This document shows, piece after piece, positions 5,568 through 11,743 of a stretch of 21,092 nucleotides of DNA. Location of the stretch: IMG/VR virus record IMGVR_UViG_3300005529_000108, positions 1 to 21,092 of that record; one strand, given 5' to 3'. The position numbers and the translations under genes were made by a program. The notes beneath the pieces are model-generated. The model saw only the letters and a program-made list of their open reading frames with translations. It ran no database searches and was not told where the DNA came from. Origin of the DNA: a virus. How positions within the stretch are numbered: position 1 is the first letter of the stretch; every line of letters begins with the position of its first letter.

Positions 5568-5614
5568 GTAGCATATAGCTTACCTTAGACGCGCTAAGGT
5601 AAGCTATATGCTAC
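5568..5614. terminator. Perfect 21-bp inverted repeat between convergent operons
   Basis: Bases 5568-5588 and 5594-5614 are perfectly complementary over 21 bp around a 5-base loop (ACGCG). It lies exactly between the last plus-strand gene (stop 5564-5566) and the last minus-strand gene, whose TAG stop (5611-5613) is inside the right arm. Position and symmetry fit a bidirectional terminator. There is no T-tract on either side, so termination may instead involve Rho or RNase III processing. Confidence 0.75.
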
Positions 5615-6318
5615 CGTAACCGCGATAGATCGATCGACGCGATACGGCCGTCGCCGCGGTCGCCTATGAGGGTCTGGGCGCCGGGGTGTTGTTTTGCCAG
5701 CCAGGACGCGATCTGTTGCATGCCCTTCCGGCCGATCGTGTTGGCGTCCGTCGGAGCCGTCGCGTAGTTGGTCCGCACGGGGCCGACGTTGTTCATGCGC
5801 AGCGTCTTTCCTCCATCCTCGGCGGCGAGTACGAGCTCGTTGGGCGCACCGGTGGTGGGGTGGGTGAACTCGTATCGCGGCGCGAGCGTCGGGTGATCCG
5901 ATCCCGCCTCGTGAATCCCAAATGGAGCGAGATCTCGCTCGGCGTCGCCGAGGAGCCCCTCGGATTCAGGGACGCCGATCGCACCGAGCGCCGTGAGTGC
6001 AGCCATGCCCGGCCGGCCGGCATTTACGGCGTCGGAAGCCTGCTTCCCCGCCTGGAGGGCGCTCACGGGCGGCAGGAAGCCCAGCACCCGCCCCAGTTTG
6101 CTGCTGGGGTCCATAACCTGCTGCCAGAATGCGGGTAGACCCTGCGGCGCTGTGGGGACGCTCGCGCGCGGCAGAGCGTCGAATCGGCCTGGCGCCATTG
6201 TTGACGGCCCGATCGTCGGCTGCGGCAACCCTTGGGGAATAGGGGTCGCGGTAGCATCGGACTGCACGGGCGCCGAACCGCCGCCGGTGCCATTTACGTA
6301 ATCGGTGATCCAGCTCAC
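5611..6318 (-). CDS. Putative virion/ejection-cluster protein (235 aa)
   Basis: This is the last late gene. It starts at GTG 6318, immediately after an in-frame TGA, so no longer version exists. The N-terminus (MSWITDYVNGTGGG) loosely resembles the MGFFDEMNG motif of its neighbours. A Pro/Gln/Thr-rich low-complexity linker runs to about residue 60, a hydrophobic Ala/Gly stretch follows (about 70-115), and then a compact C-terminal domain. That domain has strands and a helix (NTIGRKGMQQIASWLAKQHP) ending in TLIGDRGDGR, loosely like a GNAT acetyltransferase core; I hold this weakly. Context puts it with ejection proteins. No homologue is recognised with certainty. Confidence 0.75.
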   Translation of the reverse strand: MSWITDYVNGTGGGSAPVQSDATATPIPQGLPQPTIGPSTMAPGRFDALPRASVPTAPQGLPAFWQQVMDPSSKLGRVLGFLPPVSALQAGKQASDAVNAGRPGMAALTALGAIGVPESEGLLGDAERDLAPFGIHEAGSDHPTLAPRYEFTHPTTGAPNELVLAAEDGGKTLRMNNVGPVRTNYATAPTDANTIGRKGMQQIASWLAKQHPGAQTLIGDRGDGRIASIDLSRLR

Positions 6319-6419: not shown

Positions 6420-6483
6420 CGTATTGCGCGTGCTAGCGTCGCTGCTCTTCTGGCACCGCTATCGCAACGGCGAACCACTGTAG
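6346..6483 (+). CDS. Possible opposite-strand membrane peptide (35-45 aa)
   Basis: A plus-strand ORF sits in a 140-base break of the minus-strand late operon and overlaps the 3' end of the 174-aa gene. Starts are ATG 6346 (45 aa, basic N-terminus MALRWTYRSP) or ATG 6376 (35 aa). Both give a strong single membrane helix (MLILEIAAGIVLAVIVLRVL) followed by HRYRNGEPL. No good ribosome site is seen; weak boxes TTGAGG (6352) and TATGCT (6375) with 17-base spacing are not convincing. It is reported because the hydrophobic pattern resembles the other tiny membrane proteins of this phage. Confidence 0.35.
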   Translation: MALRWTYRSPMLILEIAAGIVLAVIVLRVLASLLFWHRYRNGEPL

Positions 6484-6983
6484 GGGCCCGGCGTCAGATT
6501 GAGCGCCGCCAGTACTTTGCCGAGATCCCACTGCGCGACGTGGCCGTCTGGTCCGATGCGGTAGACGCTACTCTGGTTCGTGACGTAGCTCGGAATCTGT
6601 GCCGTCCGCGCCATATTGACGTCGTCCGATGACGGGTCGCCTGGCGCGTAGCCGCCGCGGGGAAATTCAGGCGACGCGCCTGGACTGATATAGCCGTGCC
6701 ACGGGTGGTTGTGGGCAATGGCCATGAGCATGTAGTTCGCGCGTTGCGCCGAATCCAGCGCGGGCATGGCCGCCTGCACGTGCGCGGCCTGACTGCCGAC
6801 GTCCGGCGACGGCATCACAACGTCAGAGTCGCCAGCCATGTCGTGAAATAGAAGCGACATGTGCTCGTGCTTGTCGGTGATACCCTGCGCCTGCTGCTGC
6901 GCCAGCCACTGCGCCCACTTCGGACTGTGCGTCAACAACGAATCCGGCGCCGGCGGATGCGTCAGTTCATCAAACAGCCCCAC
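6459..6983 (-). CDS. JAMM/DUF4329-like protein with virion-type N-terminal motif (174 aa)
   Basis: It starts at GTG 6983 directly after the upstream TAA. The first residues MGLFDELTHPPAP share the motif found on two neighbouring virion proteins. The C-terminal domain carries HNHP (H91, H93), a Gly/Pro-rich loop, then PSSDDVNMA (D121), followed by YVTNQSSVYRIGPDG. This is the H-x-H-P...S-x-x-D layout of JAMM/Mov34 metalloproteases and DUF4329. E40 (HEHMSLLF) could be the catalytic Glu. JAMM domains occur in phage tail-tip proteins such as lambda K, so an injected or tail-associated peptidase is plausible. Activity is inferred from the motif only. No signal peptide or membrane span is seen. Confidence 0.72.
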   Translation of the reverse strand: MGLFDELTHPPAPDSLLTHSPKWAQWLAQQQAQGITDKHEHMSLLFHDMAGDSDVVMPSPDVGSQAAHVQAAMPALDSAQRANYMLMAIAHNHPWHGYISPGASPEFPRGGYAPGDPSSDDVNMARTAQIPSYVTNQSSVYRIGPDGHVAQWDLGKVLAALNLTPGPYSGSPLR

Positions 6984-9032
6984 TTACTGCGGCTCATGTA
7001 GCAACCCGGGGAATTGGCCGCCCGCCGCAGCCGGCGCGCCGAGCGCCGCGCCAGGAAGACCGGGCTGAGGCATCTGCAATCGCGCAAGCAGTTGGTTGAT
7101 AGCGTCGGGGCCCTGCGTCATCAGCATGGGCGCGATCTTGCCAGCATCCGTGCGGACAGCATCTGCGGCGGACTGCCGCGCGGCCGAGTTGACTAGTCCT
7201 AAGGTCGACATCAACGGACTGCGCGCGAACCGCAACATTTTCGGCATGGCCGCCGCGACCGACGCGGCCCCGGCTTCGGTACGCGGCGCAGTCGGCGACC
7301 CACCGGTGGCCTTTTGAAGGCGCGCGAGCTGTGCCTCTGACTCGACCTGCTGCACGAATTTTTGAAACGTCGGCTGGTCACCGAATACGATTTGCAATTT
7401 GTCCTGAGTCGCCGGCGACGCCGACATGAGTTGCGCGGCCTGGTTTCGATTGGTCGACGTGCTACGAAGCTGATCAATCAACTGGGAAGCCATGCCGCGA
7501 CGAAACTCAGCCTGCTCAGCAGGAGAGAACGCCGCCATTTGCTTGGCCAGCGCGCGCGTATCGGATTTACCCCACGCCTCAACTCCGGCTTCGACGGCTT
7601 CCTCAAGGCCTTTGCGCTGCGCATACTCGGCTTGCACGGGCGCATAGTTCGGATCTTTACCCAAAGCATCCTTGACGGCGCTCTGGACCGTCTGATAAGC
7701 CTTTGCCAGGTTGCCATTGCCGGCTCGGTATGCCGTACTAATACGGCCGTCTAGCATCTGATCGAATGACTGCAAATCAGCGAACGTCGCGGGGCGCGTG
7801 CCGCCCTTCTCGATCATGCTTTGCAACGAGGGCACGGTTTTCATAGCGTCCCGGATCGTGCCCGCGTCAGCTTCGGGGTTCTGTTCGGAAAGGCTCTGAA
7901 ACAGGCGATCGGCCGGGCTATCGGAAACGATATCACCGGCGAGCCGCGCCTGCTGCCATGCCTGCTTGACGCCGGGCTTCTGGAGCGTCGCCGCAAGCGA
8001 CGTCCAGTCAATGTCCTTATTGGCCTCGCGCAGCTTGTCGTAGGCATCGTTGGCCCACGCGCGTCGCGACGCCGCGAGCTCGTCGAGGCGCTGATCGGCT
8101 ATAGGATTTCCGGTCACGTTCTGCACGTCATTGAGCAACCGATCGCCCGGTCCGGCTGCCCGCGAGCGGGTCACGGCATCGATCGCAGCATGGGCGTCGC
8201 TGTTCGCTGTCGCCACGCGATCGGCTTCGGCCGCGAGCGGCGGCGAGAGATCCGCCAACGTCGCCTGGTCTCCGCGGCCTGCCGCCTGCAATTTGGCGAG
8301 AGTCGTCTGCCAGGACGGGTCTTTAGCCGCAACGGTCGCGAGACGCTGCTCCGCGCTCGTGAGCGGCACGCGTCCCGCGATCTTGTCCGCGATAGCGCCG
8401 AGCACCGGCGAAAGCGTGCCGCCGAGCACCGCACCGCCGGCGCCCCCAGTCGCCGCACCACTAACTCTATTGTCAGGACCTGCCGCGCCCGCGCCATTCA
8501 CCGCGCCGAGCACGGCTCCCGTGCCCGCTCCGACAGCCGCACGGCCAGCCGCCGTGCTCGCGCCTATCTCTGGCGCCAATAGAAACGGCGCGACGCCGCC
8601 GGCGATGTCCGCCGCCGTGGCGCCCACCTTATGCGTCGCCTTAAATGACGAAAGCTGGTCGCGTAGGAACTGCGCCGTTTCATCCGGCGTACGTCCACCG
8701 GAAGGAACCCCAATCCGCGACAGAAACGCGCCTACCTCAGGTGCCCAATGCTGAAAGATTCCGTTCGCGCCATGCAACGCATAGCCAGACCAATCGGGGC
8801 CGACGAAACTCGGCTTGTCGCCGGTCGGAGCCGGATTACTTACCAACTGTAGGTCCTTGACTCCGAACTTGCCGCCGGTCTCTTCCCGTACGAACGCTTC
8901 TTCTGCAGACGGGTCTAATGTGATGCCCTTTTCCGCAGCGCGCGAACGCGCGAGCGCAAGTTGCGCCCCAACCGCTGCGGTCGGGTCGATGGGAGCAACT
9001 TGCGTAGGAGGGGGCGGAACTGGAGTTGGCAT
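6984..9032 (-). CDS. Internal virion / DNA ejection protein candidate (682 aa)
   Basis: This is the largest late protein of the ejection-type cluster. It starts at ATG 9032 in a TAATG overlap. The N-terminus is Pro-rich (MPTPVPPPPTQ). Residues about 20-130 form a folded region (EEAFVREETGGKFGVKD...). Residues about 135-220 are a long Gly/Ala-rich hydrophobic stretch with glycine-zipper character (AAVGAGTGAVLGAVNGAG), as expected for a protein that inserts into membranes. The remaining 450 residues are helical and coiled-coil prone. The C-terminus is Pro/Ala/Gly-rich. Size, composition and position match the large ejection proteins of podoviruses (comparable in role to T7 gp15/gp16 or P22 gp16/gp20), but sequence homology is not claimed. 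No transglycosylase motif is evident. Confidence 0.72.
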   Translation of the reverse strand: MPTPVPPPPTQVAPIDPTAAVGAQLALARSRAAEKGITLDPSAEEAFVREETGGKFGVKDLQLVSNPAPTGDKPSFVGPDWSGYALHGANGIFQHWAPEVGAFLSRIGVPSGGRTPDETAQFLRDQLSSFKATHKVGATAADIAGGVAPFLLAPEIGASTAAGRAAVGAGTGAVLGAVNGAGAAGPDNRVSGAATGGAGGAVLGGTLSPVLGAIADKIAGRVPLTSAEQRLATVAAKDPSWQTTLAKLQAAGRGDQATLADLSPPLAAEADRVATANSDAHAAIDAVTRSRAAGPGDRLLNDVQNVTGNPIADQRLDELAASRRAWANDAYDKLREANKDIDWTSLAATLQKPGVKQAWQQARLAGDIVSDSPADRLFQSLSEQNPEADAGTIRDAMKTVPSLQSMIEKGGTRPATFADLQSFDQMLDGRISTAYRAGNGNLAKAYQTVQSAVKDALGKDPNYAPVQAEYAQRKGLEEAVEAGVEAWGKSDTRALAKQMAAFSPAEQAEFRRGMASQLIDQLRSTSTNRNQAAQLMSASPATQDKLQIVFGDQPTFQKFVQQVESEAQLARLQKATGGSPTAPRTEAGAASVAAAMPKMLRFARSPLMSTLGLVNSAARQSAADAVRTDAGKIAPMLMTQGPDAINQLLARLQMPQPGLPGAALGAPAAAGGQFPGLLHEPQ

Positions 9033-10300
9033 TACTTCGTCTTCAGCAAATCACGAACCTGTTGCGATCCGCCGCTGCTCAATGCGGGCAGCATTTCCGT
9101 CGGATCATCGAACACCTGCGGATCGACCTGCCAACGTGCCGCCCGCTTCGCGTAATCAGCGCGGATGGGCGCCACGTCATTAAGGGTGTTCTGGTGCGCC
9201 GACCGCACGACGTTGATCAAACCCTTCACCTGATCATCCGTCAGCAGCGCGCCACCCTTCCCATTCTGCAACTTCTCAAAGAGCCGACTCACATTGCCGA
9301 CAGGTCCGACCGAACCCTGATAGCTCTGCAACTCGTTGCGCGGGACCTGCATGCCGGGATGCGCGAGGTTGAGTGCGTTGTACAGCAGCTCCTGCTCGGC
9401 CGTGATATCGTGCTTCGTCGCGCCCGGAATAGCGGCATACGCGCTCTGAATCTGACGGCTCTGATCGACGTACGGTTTAATCTCGCCATTATACTGCTGC
9501 ACGAGACGGTCTTCGCGGTTAGAGGCGGCGTTCGTTGTTGCTAGCGCTTGCTGCGCATCACGGTACGATTTGGCGTCGTCACTCATCTGCTTCGGCATAG
9601 GTTGCAACCACGGAATTGGCTGCCCCGTAAGTTTGTTGATCGGCACGAGTTGATTACCCGTGTCTTTGTATTCCACCTCCATCGGCTTGGATGCGTTGTC
9701 GAAACTGCCCTTGAGCGTCTCTCCGATCTTACCGGCCATCTCCATGTCGCCCGCAGCGACGTACGCCTGGTAAGCCTGCATCAGCTTCTGCGTCGTCTGC
9801 TGTGGAGTGTCACCCCGCTGTGGCATGAACATAGATCCAATCGCCGCACGGTTACGCAGGATGCTCTGCTGGTAGCCGACGTTCTGCGCTTCACCCATTT
9901 GCTGGATAGGCTGCTGAATCGCCTCGTTGAACCCCTGGCGCATGTTATTGACGCCGCCGGCGAGCGCTTGCCCGAAGGTGCCCATTGCAGGTTGGCCCAA
10001 GACGCCGAGACCAAAGTCGAGCAGTCCGCGAGAACGCGCGTGCTGCAAGTCCGCCTGCGAGATAAGACCGGAATCAACGAGCGCCTGCGGATTCGGATTG
10101 ATATTGCCGCTGATGTTCTGGCCCGCGCGCTTCAGGCGATCCCAAAACGACATGCGGACCGGAGACGAGACTACGGGAGCCGCACTGGGCGTAAGTTGCG
10201 AGGCGGGCGCCTGCATTCCGGGGGTGCTTGAGATTTGCGCAAACGTCGGGGCACCGGGAACGATCGGAGGGGGCCCGTTCATTTCATCGAAAAAACCCAT
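9032..10300 (-). CDS. Internal virion / ejection protein candidate with MGFFDEM motif (422 aa)
   Basis: It starts at ATG 10300 in a TAATG overlap. The N-terminal 35 residues (MGFFDEMNGPPPIVPG...TFAQIS) match the N-terminus of the preceding 134-aa protein in motif and in the downstream FAQIS. A second similar motif, MSFWDRLKRAG, is at residues 50-60. Then comes a Gly-rich helical region (LLDFGLGVLGQPAMGTFGQA) and a long Gln/Ala-rich, mostly helical body. Composition and genomic neighbours suggest a protein carried in the virion and released with the DNA. No enzyme motif is seen. Confidence 0.72.
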   Translation of the reverse strand: MGFFDEMNGPPPIVPGAPTFAQISSTPGMQAPASQLTPSAAPVVSSPVRMSFWDRLKRAGQNISGNINPNPQALVDSGLISQADLQHARSRGLLDFGLGVLGQPAMGTFGQALAGGVNNMRQGFNEAIQQPIQQMGEAQNVGYQQSILRNRAAIGSMFMPQRGDTPQQTTQKLMQAYQAYVAAGDMEMAGKIGETLKGSFDNASKPMEVEYKDTGNQLVPINKLTGQPIPWLQPMPKQMSDDAKSYRDAQQALATTNAASNREDRLVQQYNGEIKPYVDQSRQIQSAYAAIPGATKHDITAEQELLYNALNLAHPGMQVPRNELQSYQGSVGPVGNVSRLFEKLQNGKGGALLTDDQVKGLINVVRSAHQNTLNDVAPIRADYAKRAARWQVDPQVFDDPTEMLPALSSGGSQQVRDLLKTK

Positions 10301-10704
10301 TAGTACATCCTCTGTCCGCTAGCCAGCGGATTCGCGGAGAACAGTTGCGACATCTGCGCCCTGTGCTGTTGCATCGCGTTCATGTTCGGCATTCCGAGAT
10401 TCTGCATTGGATGCGGTTGCGGCATGTTCGGCGGCAATGCAGGCTGCCCCATTTGCGCAAGCCCATGCATGAGGTTCGTGAGGTGCATGCCCATTTGCGG
10501 ACCAAACGCAGAACTGAACATGCTCTGCATCATCGGTGTATGCCCGGTCATCTGTGGCTGCACACTCGGATGCTGCTGAAGTAGCGGAGCAGCCGTGCTC
10601 TGAACTTGCGGTAACCCATTGGATATCTGCGCAAACTGCTGCGGGGTAGAGATACTTATAGGCGGCGCGCCGTTCTGGCCGCCCAATTCGTCGAAGAGTC
10701 CCAT
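10300..10704 (-). CDS. Met/Gln/Pro-rich virion-type protein with MGLFDEL motif (134 aa)
   Basis: It starts at ATG 10704 (TAATG overlap) and ends in a TAATG overlap with the next gene. The N-terminus MGLFDELGGQNGAPPISI and the following QQFAQIS align with the neighbour at 9032-10300. The rest is low complexity, rich in Met, Gln, Pro and His (QPQMTGHTPMMQSMF), and probably disordered. No catalytic motif is visible. It may be a small companion of the ejection proteins, related to the neighbour's N-terminal region by duplication. Confidence 0.68.
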   Translation of the reverse strand: MGLFDELGGQNGAPPISISTPQQFAQISNGLPQVQSTAAPLLQQHPSVQPQMTGHTPMMQSMFSSAFGPQMGMHLTNLMHGLAQMGQPALPPNMPQPHPMQNLGMPNMNAMQQHRAQMSQLFSANPLASGQRMY

Positions 10705-11384
10705 TACATCATTGCCACAAGACCCGCCCCAGTGGTGACATCACCGAGCGCCGTTGACCACGGGCTGGGATTCTGCTGCTGCGTCTGCGTGCCTTGGAAC
10801 GGCGTCGCCATGACCGAGCCGCGCATGACGTTGTACGGATTCATGAACTGCTGTTGCGCAACACCCGTCTCATACTGGCCGATGTTGTTCAACTGGCTGC
10901 CAGCGCCGAAGCCGAGGTTCGCGAGCTGTCCGGCCTGCTGCATAGCCTGCTGATAGCCGCCTGACAACAGATTCGCGATGGTGTTGTTCTCGCCCGTCTG
11001 CGCCGTGCCCAGTGCGGCACCCTGCGCGACCGCCGCGCGGTCGCCACCGAACGCGCCCTGCGCGGTCGCGTTCGAGTTGACTTGGTTGGCCACCTGCGCA
11101 TTGTTGTTAGCGAACTGCTGATTTTGCGCGTTGATCACCTCTGACTGATACGGGTTCATCAACTTCTGGAGATCCTGCGCGTTCCCGCTCAGTGCACCCA
11201 TGCCGGTTTGCGCGCCAGGCAGCATTCCCTGGAAGAAGCCCTGCGCCTGATACGTCGGCTGACTGACGCCGGGGAGTTGTCCCGCGGCCGTCTGGTCCGC
11301 CGTGTTCCACATCTGCTGCAACTGCTGTTGTTCAGCAGGAGAGAGTTGTGTCGTATTTGTCTGACTGCCGCCCTTTGAGCCCAC
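10704..11384 (-). CDS. Gln/Asn/Ala-rich virion protein, probable ejection-cluster member (226 aa)
   Basis: It starts at GTG 11384 overlapping the upstream TAG by one base. The sequence begins MGSKGGSQTNTTQLSPAEQQ and is rich in Gln, Asn, Gly and Ala, with Phe/Tyr spaced through helical segments. I recall this MGSKGG/Q-rich type from the structural regions of proteobacterial podoviruses, where it lies beside ejection proteins. The C-terminus is hydrophobic (TTGAGLVAMM). No enzymatic motif. The role is assigned from composition and neighbours. Confidence 0.65.
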   Translation of the reverse strand: MGSKGGSQTNTTQLSPAEQQQLQQMWNTADQTAAGQLPGVSQPTYQAQGFFQGMLPGAQTGMGALSGNAQDLQKLMNPYQSEVINAQNQQFANNNAQVANQVNSNATAQGAFGGDRAAVAQGAALGTAQTGENNTIANLLSGGYQQAMQQAGQLANLGFGAGSQLNNIGQYETGVAQQQFMNPYNVMRGSVMATPFQGTQTQQQNPSPWSTALGDVTTGAGLVAMM

Positions 11385-11743
11385 TAGAGTCGTTTCTCGA
11401 GCACCACCAGTCTTTTATCTTCCCACCCCGCGCGAGAAGTAAGAAACGAACGCTCCCATCCGCGTCGACCTGTCATGTAGATCAGGGCACAGCCGCGGGT
11501 GCGTCCGAAGGCGCACACAAGCGGCTCCATCGCTTCAAGTTCCGCGAGGTTGCCACCCGCTAGGAACACGTTCACTGCTTTCTCGCGTGGTGATTCGAGA
11601 ACCTCGGTAATCATCACGCTCTGCGGGCCGTTCCACATCTGAAACCGGCCGCTTGCTACCCCTTCAGCGATGTCGTCGAATGCGTGAGAGCCGCCCGCGT
11701 ATTCGAGTGCCGCCTCAATCTGCTTCCGATATTGCTCTATCAC
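11384..11743 (-). CDS. Conserved phage protein, GNAT-like (119 aa)
   Basis: It starts at GTG 11743 in a GTGA overlap. The sequence follows a pattern familiar from podovirus structural regions: DIAEGVASGRFQMWNGPQSV, then VFLAGGNLAELEAM, and at the end GCALIYMTGRRGWERSFL. The alternation of strands and helices and the GRxGWxR ending resemble a reduced GNAT acetyltransferase fold, but the acetyl-CoA loop is not clear. It could modify or help fold neighbouring tail or ejection proteins; function is unproven. Confidence 0.72.
   Translation of the reverse strand: MIEQYRKQIEAALEYAGGSHAFDDIAEGVASGRFQMWNGPQSVMITEVLESPREKAVNVFLAGGNLAELEAMEPLVCAFGRTRGCALIYMTGRRGWERSFLTSRAGWEDKRLVVLEKRL

What the first reader, a model, noticed from the sequence alone, without database searches (positions are those of the whole stretch)
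6459..10704. Shared N-terminal MG[LF]FDE[LM] motif on three proteins of the ejection cluster
Three genes begin with almost the same peptide: MGLFDELGGQNGAPP (10704), MGFFDEMNGPPP (10300) and MGLFDELTHPPAP (6983). Their codons differ, so the match is at protein level. In the first two the likeness continues to FAQIS about 20-25 residues on. The 10300 protein has an inner variant (MSFWDRL, residues 50-56), and the last gene starts MSWITDYVNG, a looser relative. Apart from the motif the bodies differ completely. A short common tag on otherwise unrelated late proteins could be a signal for loading into the procapsid or for binding a shared partner such as the portal barrel or the large ejection protein.
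Basis: partly seen in the sequence, partly recalled or inferred. Interest (0 to 1): 0.75.

Follow-up and report, generated by a model that had tools for sequence, protein, structure and literature searches.

The report
Shared leader peptide on phage-ejected proteins
Three proteins in the DNA-injection gene cluster of this short-tailed phage start with the same tiny peptide, and unrelated phages put nearly the same peptide at the start of their own injected proteins and probable injected enzymes, so it looks like a reusable address label for loading cargo into the virus particle.

Summary
MGLFDEL, MGFFDEM and MGLFDEL start three genes of the ejection cluster; no other non-homologous N-termini within one genome are as alike. 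Two corrections apply. The first two proteins also share a ~50-residue N-terminal arm, an old local duplication. The "inner" MSFWDRL is the normal start of the middle protein (EjB), so 49 residues were added in front of it. In relatives, the gene after the large ejection protein is a variable effector gene (ADP-ribosyltransferase, GNAT, unknown) that begins M..L[LF]D in 20 of 35 cases, against 0.4% of background families. A motif model trained only on those leaders ranks the three window proteins first in the window. An unbiased scan for MG[LF]FDE starts found six true families; four are ejection or injected-protein types. Sister phages swap the effector right after the ten-codon leader. Best reading: a short acidic leader that docks co-ejected proteins on a common virion partner, working like the T4 capsid-targeting sequence. 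Virion presence and the partner are untested.

The parts
10684..10704 (-). leader MGLFDEL of the short pre-EjB protein
   Evidence: motif model score 16.8, above all 681 background families
10300..10704 (-). short Gln/Met/Pro-rich protein (134 aa) between EjA and EjB; N-terminal ~50 aa homologous to the EjB arm
   Evidence: a short gene lies at the same place in several relatives, and in PaP3 it is annotated 'virion structural protein'
10280..10300 (-). leader MGFFDEM of EjB
   Evidence: motif model score 10.1, above 99.85% of background families
10154..10300 (-). added N-terminal arm of EjB (residues 1-49), duplicated with the arm of 10704-10300
10133..10153 (-). inner MSFWDRL (residues 50-56), corresponds to the usual N-terminus of EjB
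   Evidence: hhalign places residues 78-136 on EjB 24-86
9032..10300 (-). EjB, pilot/ejection-type protein (422 aa)
   Evidence: synteny and weak hhalign match to the EjB family; no database family of known function
6984..9032 (-). EjC, large ejection-type protein (682 aa), no leader
   Evidence: phrog_5880, E=1e-40; position
6963..6983 (-). leader MGLFDEL of the terminal effector candidate, GTG start
   Evidence: motif model score 16.8
6459..6983 (-). terminal effector candidate (174 aa), possible DUF4329/JAB-like body (HNHP...SSDD)
   Evidence: Pfam DUF4329 E=0.052, below its cut-off; position after EjC as in relatives
10704..11384 (-). EjA, DNA ejection protein, no leader
   Evidence: phrog_4287 'DNA ejection protein' E=1.5e-4
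11384..11743 (-). small conserved protein upstream of EjA, at the position of an annotated (putative) acetyltransferase in relatives
   Evidence: phrog_22172 E=3e-11; 75 relative loci match
5611..6318 (-). second gene after EjC (235 aa), unknown; start codon uncertain; leader not supported

Best explanation
The peptide is a short N-terminal leader (M-x(0-2)-[LF][LF]-D-[DE]-x-hydrophobic, net acidic, amphipathic if helical) that marks proteins to be packed with, and ejected by, the podoviral ejection machine. In this phage it sits on a short protein, on EjB and on the terminal effector-like gene. Mechanism: after synthesis from the late operon, the exposed leader of each protein docks on one common partner that lacks the leader (EjA, EjC or the portal are the candidates) and so brings EjB and cargo into the procapsid core; they then leave through the portal with the DNA. 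Shown: the shared peptide, its protein-level conservation, its recurrence on ejection-cluster and injected-type proteins of other phages, and effector swapping behind it. Inferred: packaging, ejection, the docking partner and the effector function of 6983-6459.
For: N-terminal likeness far above background. Synonymous codon turnover with no amino-acid change. In EjB-anchored relatives the gene after EjC starts M..L[LF]D in 20 of 35 unique effectors and in 5 of 6 N-terminal module types, against 0.43% of 595 background families; without window and L131, Fisher p=1e-6 on modules. Bodies vary: ART-PolyVal above Pfam's cut-off in L043, GNAT above cut-off in L063, DUF7178 in L294, others unknown, and modules and bodies reassort. 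A model trained on other phages' leaders ranks the three window proteins 1-3 in the window. Unbiased scan: MGLFDE[LI] starts a T7-gp16-like polyvalent protein with PBECR5 and ART domains, a protein at the T7 gp15 position, an EjA (phrog_598 DNA ejection) and the gene after the large protein in L131; only one of six families is a clear non-virion protein, a DNA methyltransferase. L261 and L265 are 96.5% identical upstream, 29/30 nt in the leader, then unrelated. Precedents: T4 CTS ~10 residues (PMC9958956), P1 DarB N-terminal 30 residues sufficient (PMC9024508).
Against: No virion proteomics for this phage or for the tagged effectors. EjB of most relatives does not carry the strict leader (for example 3 of 33 in the largest family). 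About 40% of terminal effectors lack it. The first two window copies share a duplicated arm, so they count as one event. The 6983 start is a GTG without a clear ribosome-binding site. Pfam support for the 6459 body is below cut-off. AlphaFold models were too poor to use.
Confidence: 0.6

Rival explanations
1. The leader is a passive recombination handle: the first codons travel with the conserved upstream operon, and new bodies are joined just behind them, with no function for the peptide.
For: Junctions fall right behind the leader (L261/L265, L246/L250, L246/L300), and the upstream DNA is conserved there.
Against: In L249/L265 the upstream DNA is unrelated but the leader is kept. Codons differ synonymously while residues stay. 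The same peptide occurs on ejection-type proteins of unrelated phages and on three genes of one genome.
Confidence: 0.15
2. An amphipathic membrane-active helix: the leader inserts into or disturbs the host inner membrane during ejection, helping these proteins to cross or to form the channel.
For: Hydrophobic residues at i, i+1, i+4 (and i+5) in most copies; ejection proteins do enter membranes (review PMC8954989).
Against: Leaders carry net charge -1 to -4 in the first ten residues, unfavourable for anionic bacterial membranes, and the peptide is only about 7-10 residues long.
Confidence: 0.12
3. Within this window the likeness is mostly common descent: one start cassette was duplicated from the neighbouring gene to EjB and to 6459 and is kept by drift.
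For: 10300 and 9032 share a ~50-residue arm and DNA similarity above shuffles.
Against: Between 10300 and 6459 only the heptapeptide is shared, with 5 of 6 codons changed synonymously and no residue change; neutral decay would not keep exactly seven residues. It does not explain the leaders in other phages.
Confidence: 0.1
4. Chance or compositional convergence of phage N-termini.
For: MG-hydrophobic starts are not rare in phage proteins.
Against: Background rates of about 0.4% or less of families.
Confidence: 0.03

Closest known systems
T4 capsid-targeting sequence (CTS) on internal proteins IPII and IPIII
   Same: Short N-terminal peptide (~10 aa) shared by proteins with different bodies; sends foreign proteins into the head (PMC9958956).
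   Different: T4 is a myovirus with a core and a prohead protease; no sequence relation was tested or claimed, and no protease gene was identified in this window.
P1 DarB N-terminal packaging signal
   Same: First 30 residues suffice to package a reporter (PMC9024508); an injected anti-restriction protein.
   Different: The authors found no common sequence among Dar proteins; here a common sequence is the finding.
MuF polymorphic toxins of temperate phages
   Same: N-terminal virion-linked part with exchangeable C-terminal effector domains such as ART (PMC5576092).
   Different: MuF is a folded domain next to the portal gene; here it is a 7-10 residue leader on genes behind EjC, with no MuF domain hit.
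Polyvalent proteins (phage and plasmid early effectors)
   Same: ART, PBECR and similar domains in late-gene contexts, proposed to be packaged and injected (PMC5512222); one MGLFDEL protein (L129) has PBECR5 and ART domains.
   Different: Terminal effectors here are mostly short with at most one recognised domain; no shared leader was reported in the passages read.
LUZ24/PaP3-like podovirus ejection clusters (also phiM5)
   Same: Gene order tail protein, small acetyltransferase-like protein, EjA, (short gene), EjB, EjC.
   Different: PaP3, Bjorn and phiM5 lack the leader on these genes.

Membership tests
N-terminal capsid-targeting sequences (T4 CTS / P1 DarB type) | Short N-terminal peptide common to several otherwise different proteins of one phage | tested here: met
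   (two of the three share a longer arm)
N-terminal capsid-targeting sequences (T4 CTS / P1 DarB type) | Peptide is sufficient to bring a foreign protein into the head | not testable with these tools
   needs a reporter fusion
N-terminal capsid-targeting sequences (T4 CTS / P1 DarB type) | Carrier proteins are found in virions | not tested
   no proteomics for this phage; the short gene at the same place in PaP3 is annotated virion structural protein, and phiM5 internal virion proteins are annotated as detected in particles
Polymorphic effector (toxin-like) systems | Conserved exchangeable N-terminal part with variable C-terminal domains | tested here: met
   met for terminal genes of relatives: L036/L043 80% over residues 1-119 and L016/L055 75% over 18-97 with different C-terminal parts; modules and bodies reassort
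Polymorphic effector (toxin-like) systems | The window's own terminal gene has such an architecture | tested here: inconclusive
   only the heptapeptide is shared; body hit DUF4329 E=0.052 is below cut-off; no homologs
MuF toxins | MuF domain at the N-terminus | tested here: not met
   no MuF hit in the window proteins or the terminal effectors scanned
LUZ24-like/SU10-MCP podovirus ejection cluster | SU10_MCP-type capsid and gene order tail protein-EjA-EjB-EjC | tested here: met
   PF17236 E=9e-85; phrog_3287, phrog_4287, phrog_5880
JAB/DUF4329 effector (6983-6459) | Match above the Pfam cut-off | tested here: not met
   13.9 bits vs 28.6 cut-off

The most novel reading that the evidence does not exclude
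Podoviruses of several unrelated lineages use one portable, acidic amphipathic N-terminal leader (M-x-L-[LF]-D-[DE]-x-L) as a cargo label. Any protein fused behind it in the late operon is packed with the ejection proteins and injected, which lets phages exchange effector enzymes behind a fixed ten-codon leader.
Probability: 0.45. Interest if true: 0.85.

Novelty: new variant of a known kind. Interest (0 to 1): 0.7.

Why it matters
How podoviruses select which proteins go into the capsid with the ejection apparatus is poorly understood. In the papers found and read here, a shared signal sequence was reported only for T4, and P1's Dar proteins showed none in common. A short conserved leader on ejection proteins and swappable effectors would give a directly testable signal, a sequence handle for finding injected phage effectors (ART, GNAT, nucleases, unknown folds) in metagenomes, and a minimal tag for loading proteins into podoviral particles.

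Tried and rejected
Direct homologs of EjB, EjC, 6459 and 5611: none by tblastn in 50,697 phage records, and none for EjB or EjC by single-sequence IMG/VR scans. The motif with PP: six IMG/VR hits, judged chance, internal, early-gene or misplaced. General phi-phi-[DE]-x-phi regex: only weak enrichment, replaced by the position-specific test. Repeated short motifs in EjC tails (for example NFFDQF...NYFDQF in L006): noted, not pursued. Tape-measure hits L121, L124 and L126: internal methionines, not N-termini. JAB homologs in 385 bacterial genomes: two hits with stops, rejected. PDB sequence search: nothing. AlphaFold of 6459 (pLDDT 38) and of effector L246 (pLDDT 34): unusable, so no fold search was run. 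MSWITDYVNG as a fourth member: rejected by score.

Full report
WHAT IS THERE. The window (a 21,092-base virus record) holds the late region of a podovirus-like phage on the minus strand, with an SU10-type major capsid protein (PF17236, E=9e-85), a P22-gp10-like tail protein at 14000-12216 (phrog_3287, E=9e-73) and, behind it, an ejection cluster: 11743-11384 (phrog_22172), EjA 11384-10704 (phrog_4287 'DNA ejection protein'), a short gene 10704-10300, EjB 10300-9032, EjC 9032-6984 (phrog_5880), then 6983-6459 and 6318-5611. EjA, EjB and EjC are names used here by position and weak homology. Relatives found through the capsid and tail proteins (PaP3, Bjorn, phiM5, Manatee Spring phages, many IMG/VR contigs) largely keep this order.

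CHECK OF THE OBSERVATION. The three N-termini are exactly as reported. The 6983 gene starts with GTG right after the TAA of EjC. In the two MGLFDEL copies 5 of the 6 codons after the start differ without changing a residue. N-terminal similarity between non-homologous genes of the same genome was scored in all relatives: the window pairs score 31, 31 and 27, the top three ejection-cluster pairs (the third ties one pair in L008), and the best of 2,525 control family pairs scores 26. The first two proteins align over about 50 residues, significantly even without the motif, and their DNA aligns above shuffles, so they share a duplicated arm; 6459 shares only the heptapeptide. Profile alignment places EjB residues 78-136 on residues 24-86 of the EjB family (hhalign E=0.003, reported probability only 10%), so the inner MSFWDRL is where EjB normally begins and the first 49 residues are an addition. 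The assignment of 9032 to EjB rests on this weak match plus position.

WHAT THE LEADER DOES ELSEWHERE. Anchoring on EjB brought in contigs reaching beyond EjC. The gene behind EjC usually begins with the same kind of peptide while the rest differs: MALLDEELMPFFGNPN (L232), MAGLFDDILGYMEDP (L234), MAGLLDDVLQYMQDP (L246), MAGLLDYLEGIGETG (L250), MGLLDELLNAQKPKR (L283), MAGLLDEEELLPVF (L055), MGLLEDLEFLKKQ (L036) and others. Of 35 unique terminal proteins 20 have M..L[LF]D; 5 of 6 N-terminal module types have it, against 0.43% of 595 background families. Leaving out the window and L131, Fisher p=1e-6 on modules; the body-level p-values are inflated because bodies share modules. In the relatives checked, the leader codon mostly follows a good ribosome-binding site (such as AGGAGTAA-ATG), so it is a true N-terminus, and codons vary. 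These terminal genes look like a polymorphic effector set: L036 and L043 are 80% identical over residues 1-119 and then differ; L016/L055 and L060/L063 behave alike. Domains found are ART-PolyVal (L043, 1.4e-7), GNAT (L063, 2e-5) and DUF7178 (L294, 3e-9), with weak ART matches in L261 and L285; most bodies match nothing.

BLIND TEST. A position-specific matrix built from 16 unique leaders of other phages was applied to every gene. The window's 10300, 6459 and 9032 proteins scored 16.8, 16.8 and 10.1, the three highest in the window and above 100, 100 and 99.85% of 681 background families. The L131 terminal gene scored 16.7. EjB of some other branches also scores high: L009 MAGLLDYIFDP 18.3, L215 MALLDSLFGQ 14.1, L148 MGLLDIFKRG 9.5, L103 MAGLFDNIGG 9.0; most EjB proteins do not. 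The training leaders were aligned on their L[LF]D core, so the matrix describes the leader and does not prove its frequency; frequency comes.

UNBIASED SCAN. A scan of IMG/VR for a start codon overlapping a stop and followed by MG[LF]FDE gave 28 contigs. Keeping true N-termini of ORFs of at least 150 residues leaves six families: a T7-gp16-like polyvalent protein with PBECR5 (3.8e-10), ART and transglycosylase regions (L110/L129 group); a large protein behind tail protein, acetyltransferase and small protein, that is, the T7 gp15 position (L119/L135); the gene behind the large protein in a cluster whose EjA is phrog_4287 (L131); an EjA of phrog_598 'DNA ejection' (L133); one unknown (L109); and one DNA methyltransferase (L112). 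Four of six are ejection or injected-protein types.

SWAPPING BEHIND THE LEADER. L261 and L265 are 96.5% identical over 600 nt upstream and share 29 of 30 nt of MALLDDEELL, then become unrelated, while L249 and L265 share leader and module with unrelated upstream DNA. Leader and body therefore separate in evolution.

MECHANISM. Shown: a conserved N-terminal peptide tied to ejection and terminal-effector genes in several phage lineages. Inferred: it docks these proteins on a common partner for packing and ejection. Acidic charge (-1 to -4 in the first ten residues) and shortness argue for protein docking over membrane insertion. EjA and EjC lack the leader and, with the portal, are candidate receptors (inference). 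It works like the T4 CTS (about 10 residues, PMC9958956) and the P1 DarB signal (30 residues sufficient, PMC9024508); kinship with either is not claimed.

LIMITS. No proteomics, no close relatives of the window, low-quality structure models, simple gene calling in relatives, and a weak assignment of the 6459 body (DUF4329 E=0.052, below its cut-off). The literature search covered open PMC papers only and found no description of this leader.

Noticed in passing
window 5568-5614: Perfect 21-bp inverted repeat with a 5-nt loop at the end of the last late gene, between convergent late and early operons; probably a bidirectional terminator.
   Followed up: partly
L006 14357-16015; L009 29341-31026; L133 152-1987; L074 15389-16984: Large ejection proteins of other phages start with short repeated aromatic motifs in a loose tail (NFFDQF..NYFDQF; GPWEQY..GPWQNY; NIFDQF..NVFDQF; GYEDLIP twice), perhaps a second kind of docking repeat.
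   Followed up: no
L036, L043, L016, L055, L060, L063 and other terminal genes: Terminal genes behind EjC form a polymorphic effector set with exchangeable N-terminal modules; most C-terminal bodies match no Pfam family.
   Followed up: partly
L129 1325-5692 and about eleven similar contigs: A 1,456-residue T7-gp16-like protein starting MGLFDELLSQPG, encoded right after the terminase gene, with PBECR5 nuclease, ART and transglycosylase regions.
   Followed up: partly
window 6318-5611: Orphan 235-aa protein whose C-terminal part (NTIGRKGMQQIASWLAKQHPGAQTLIGDR) faintly resembles a GNAT core by eye; no database support.
   Followed up: no
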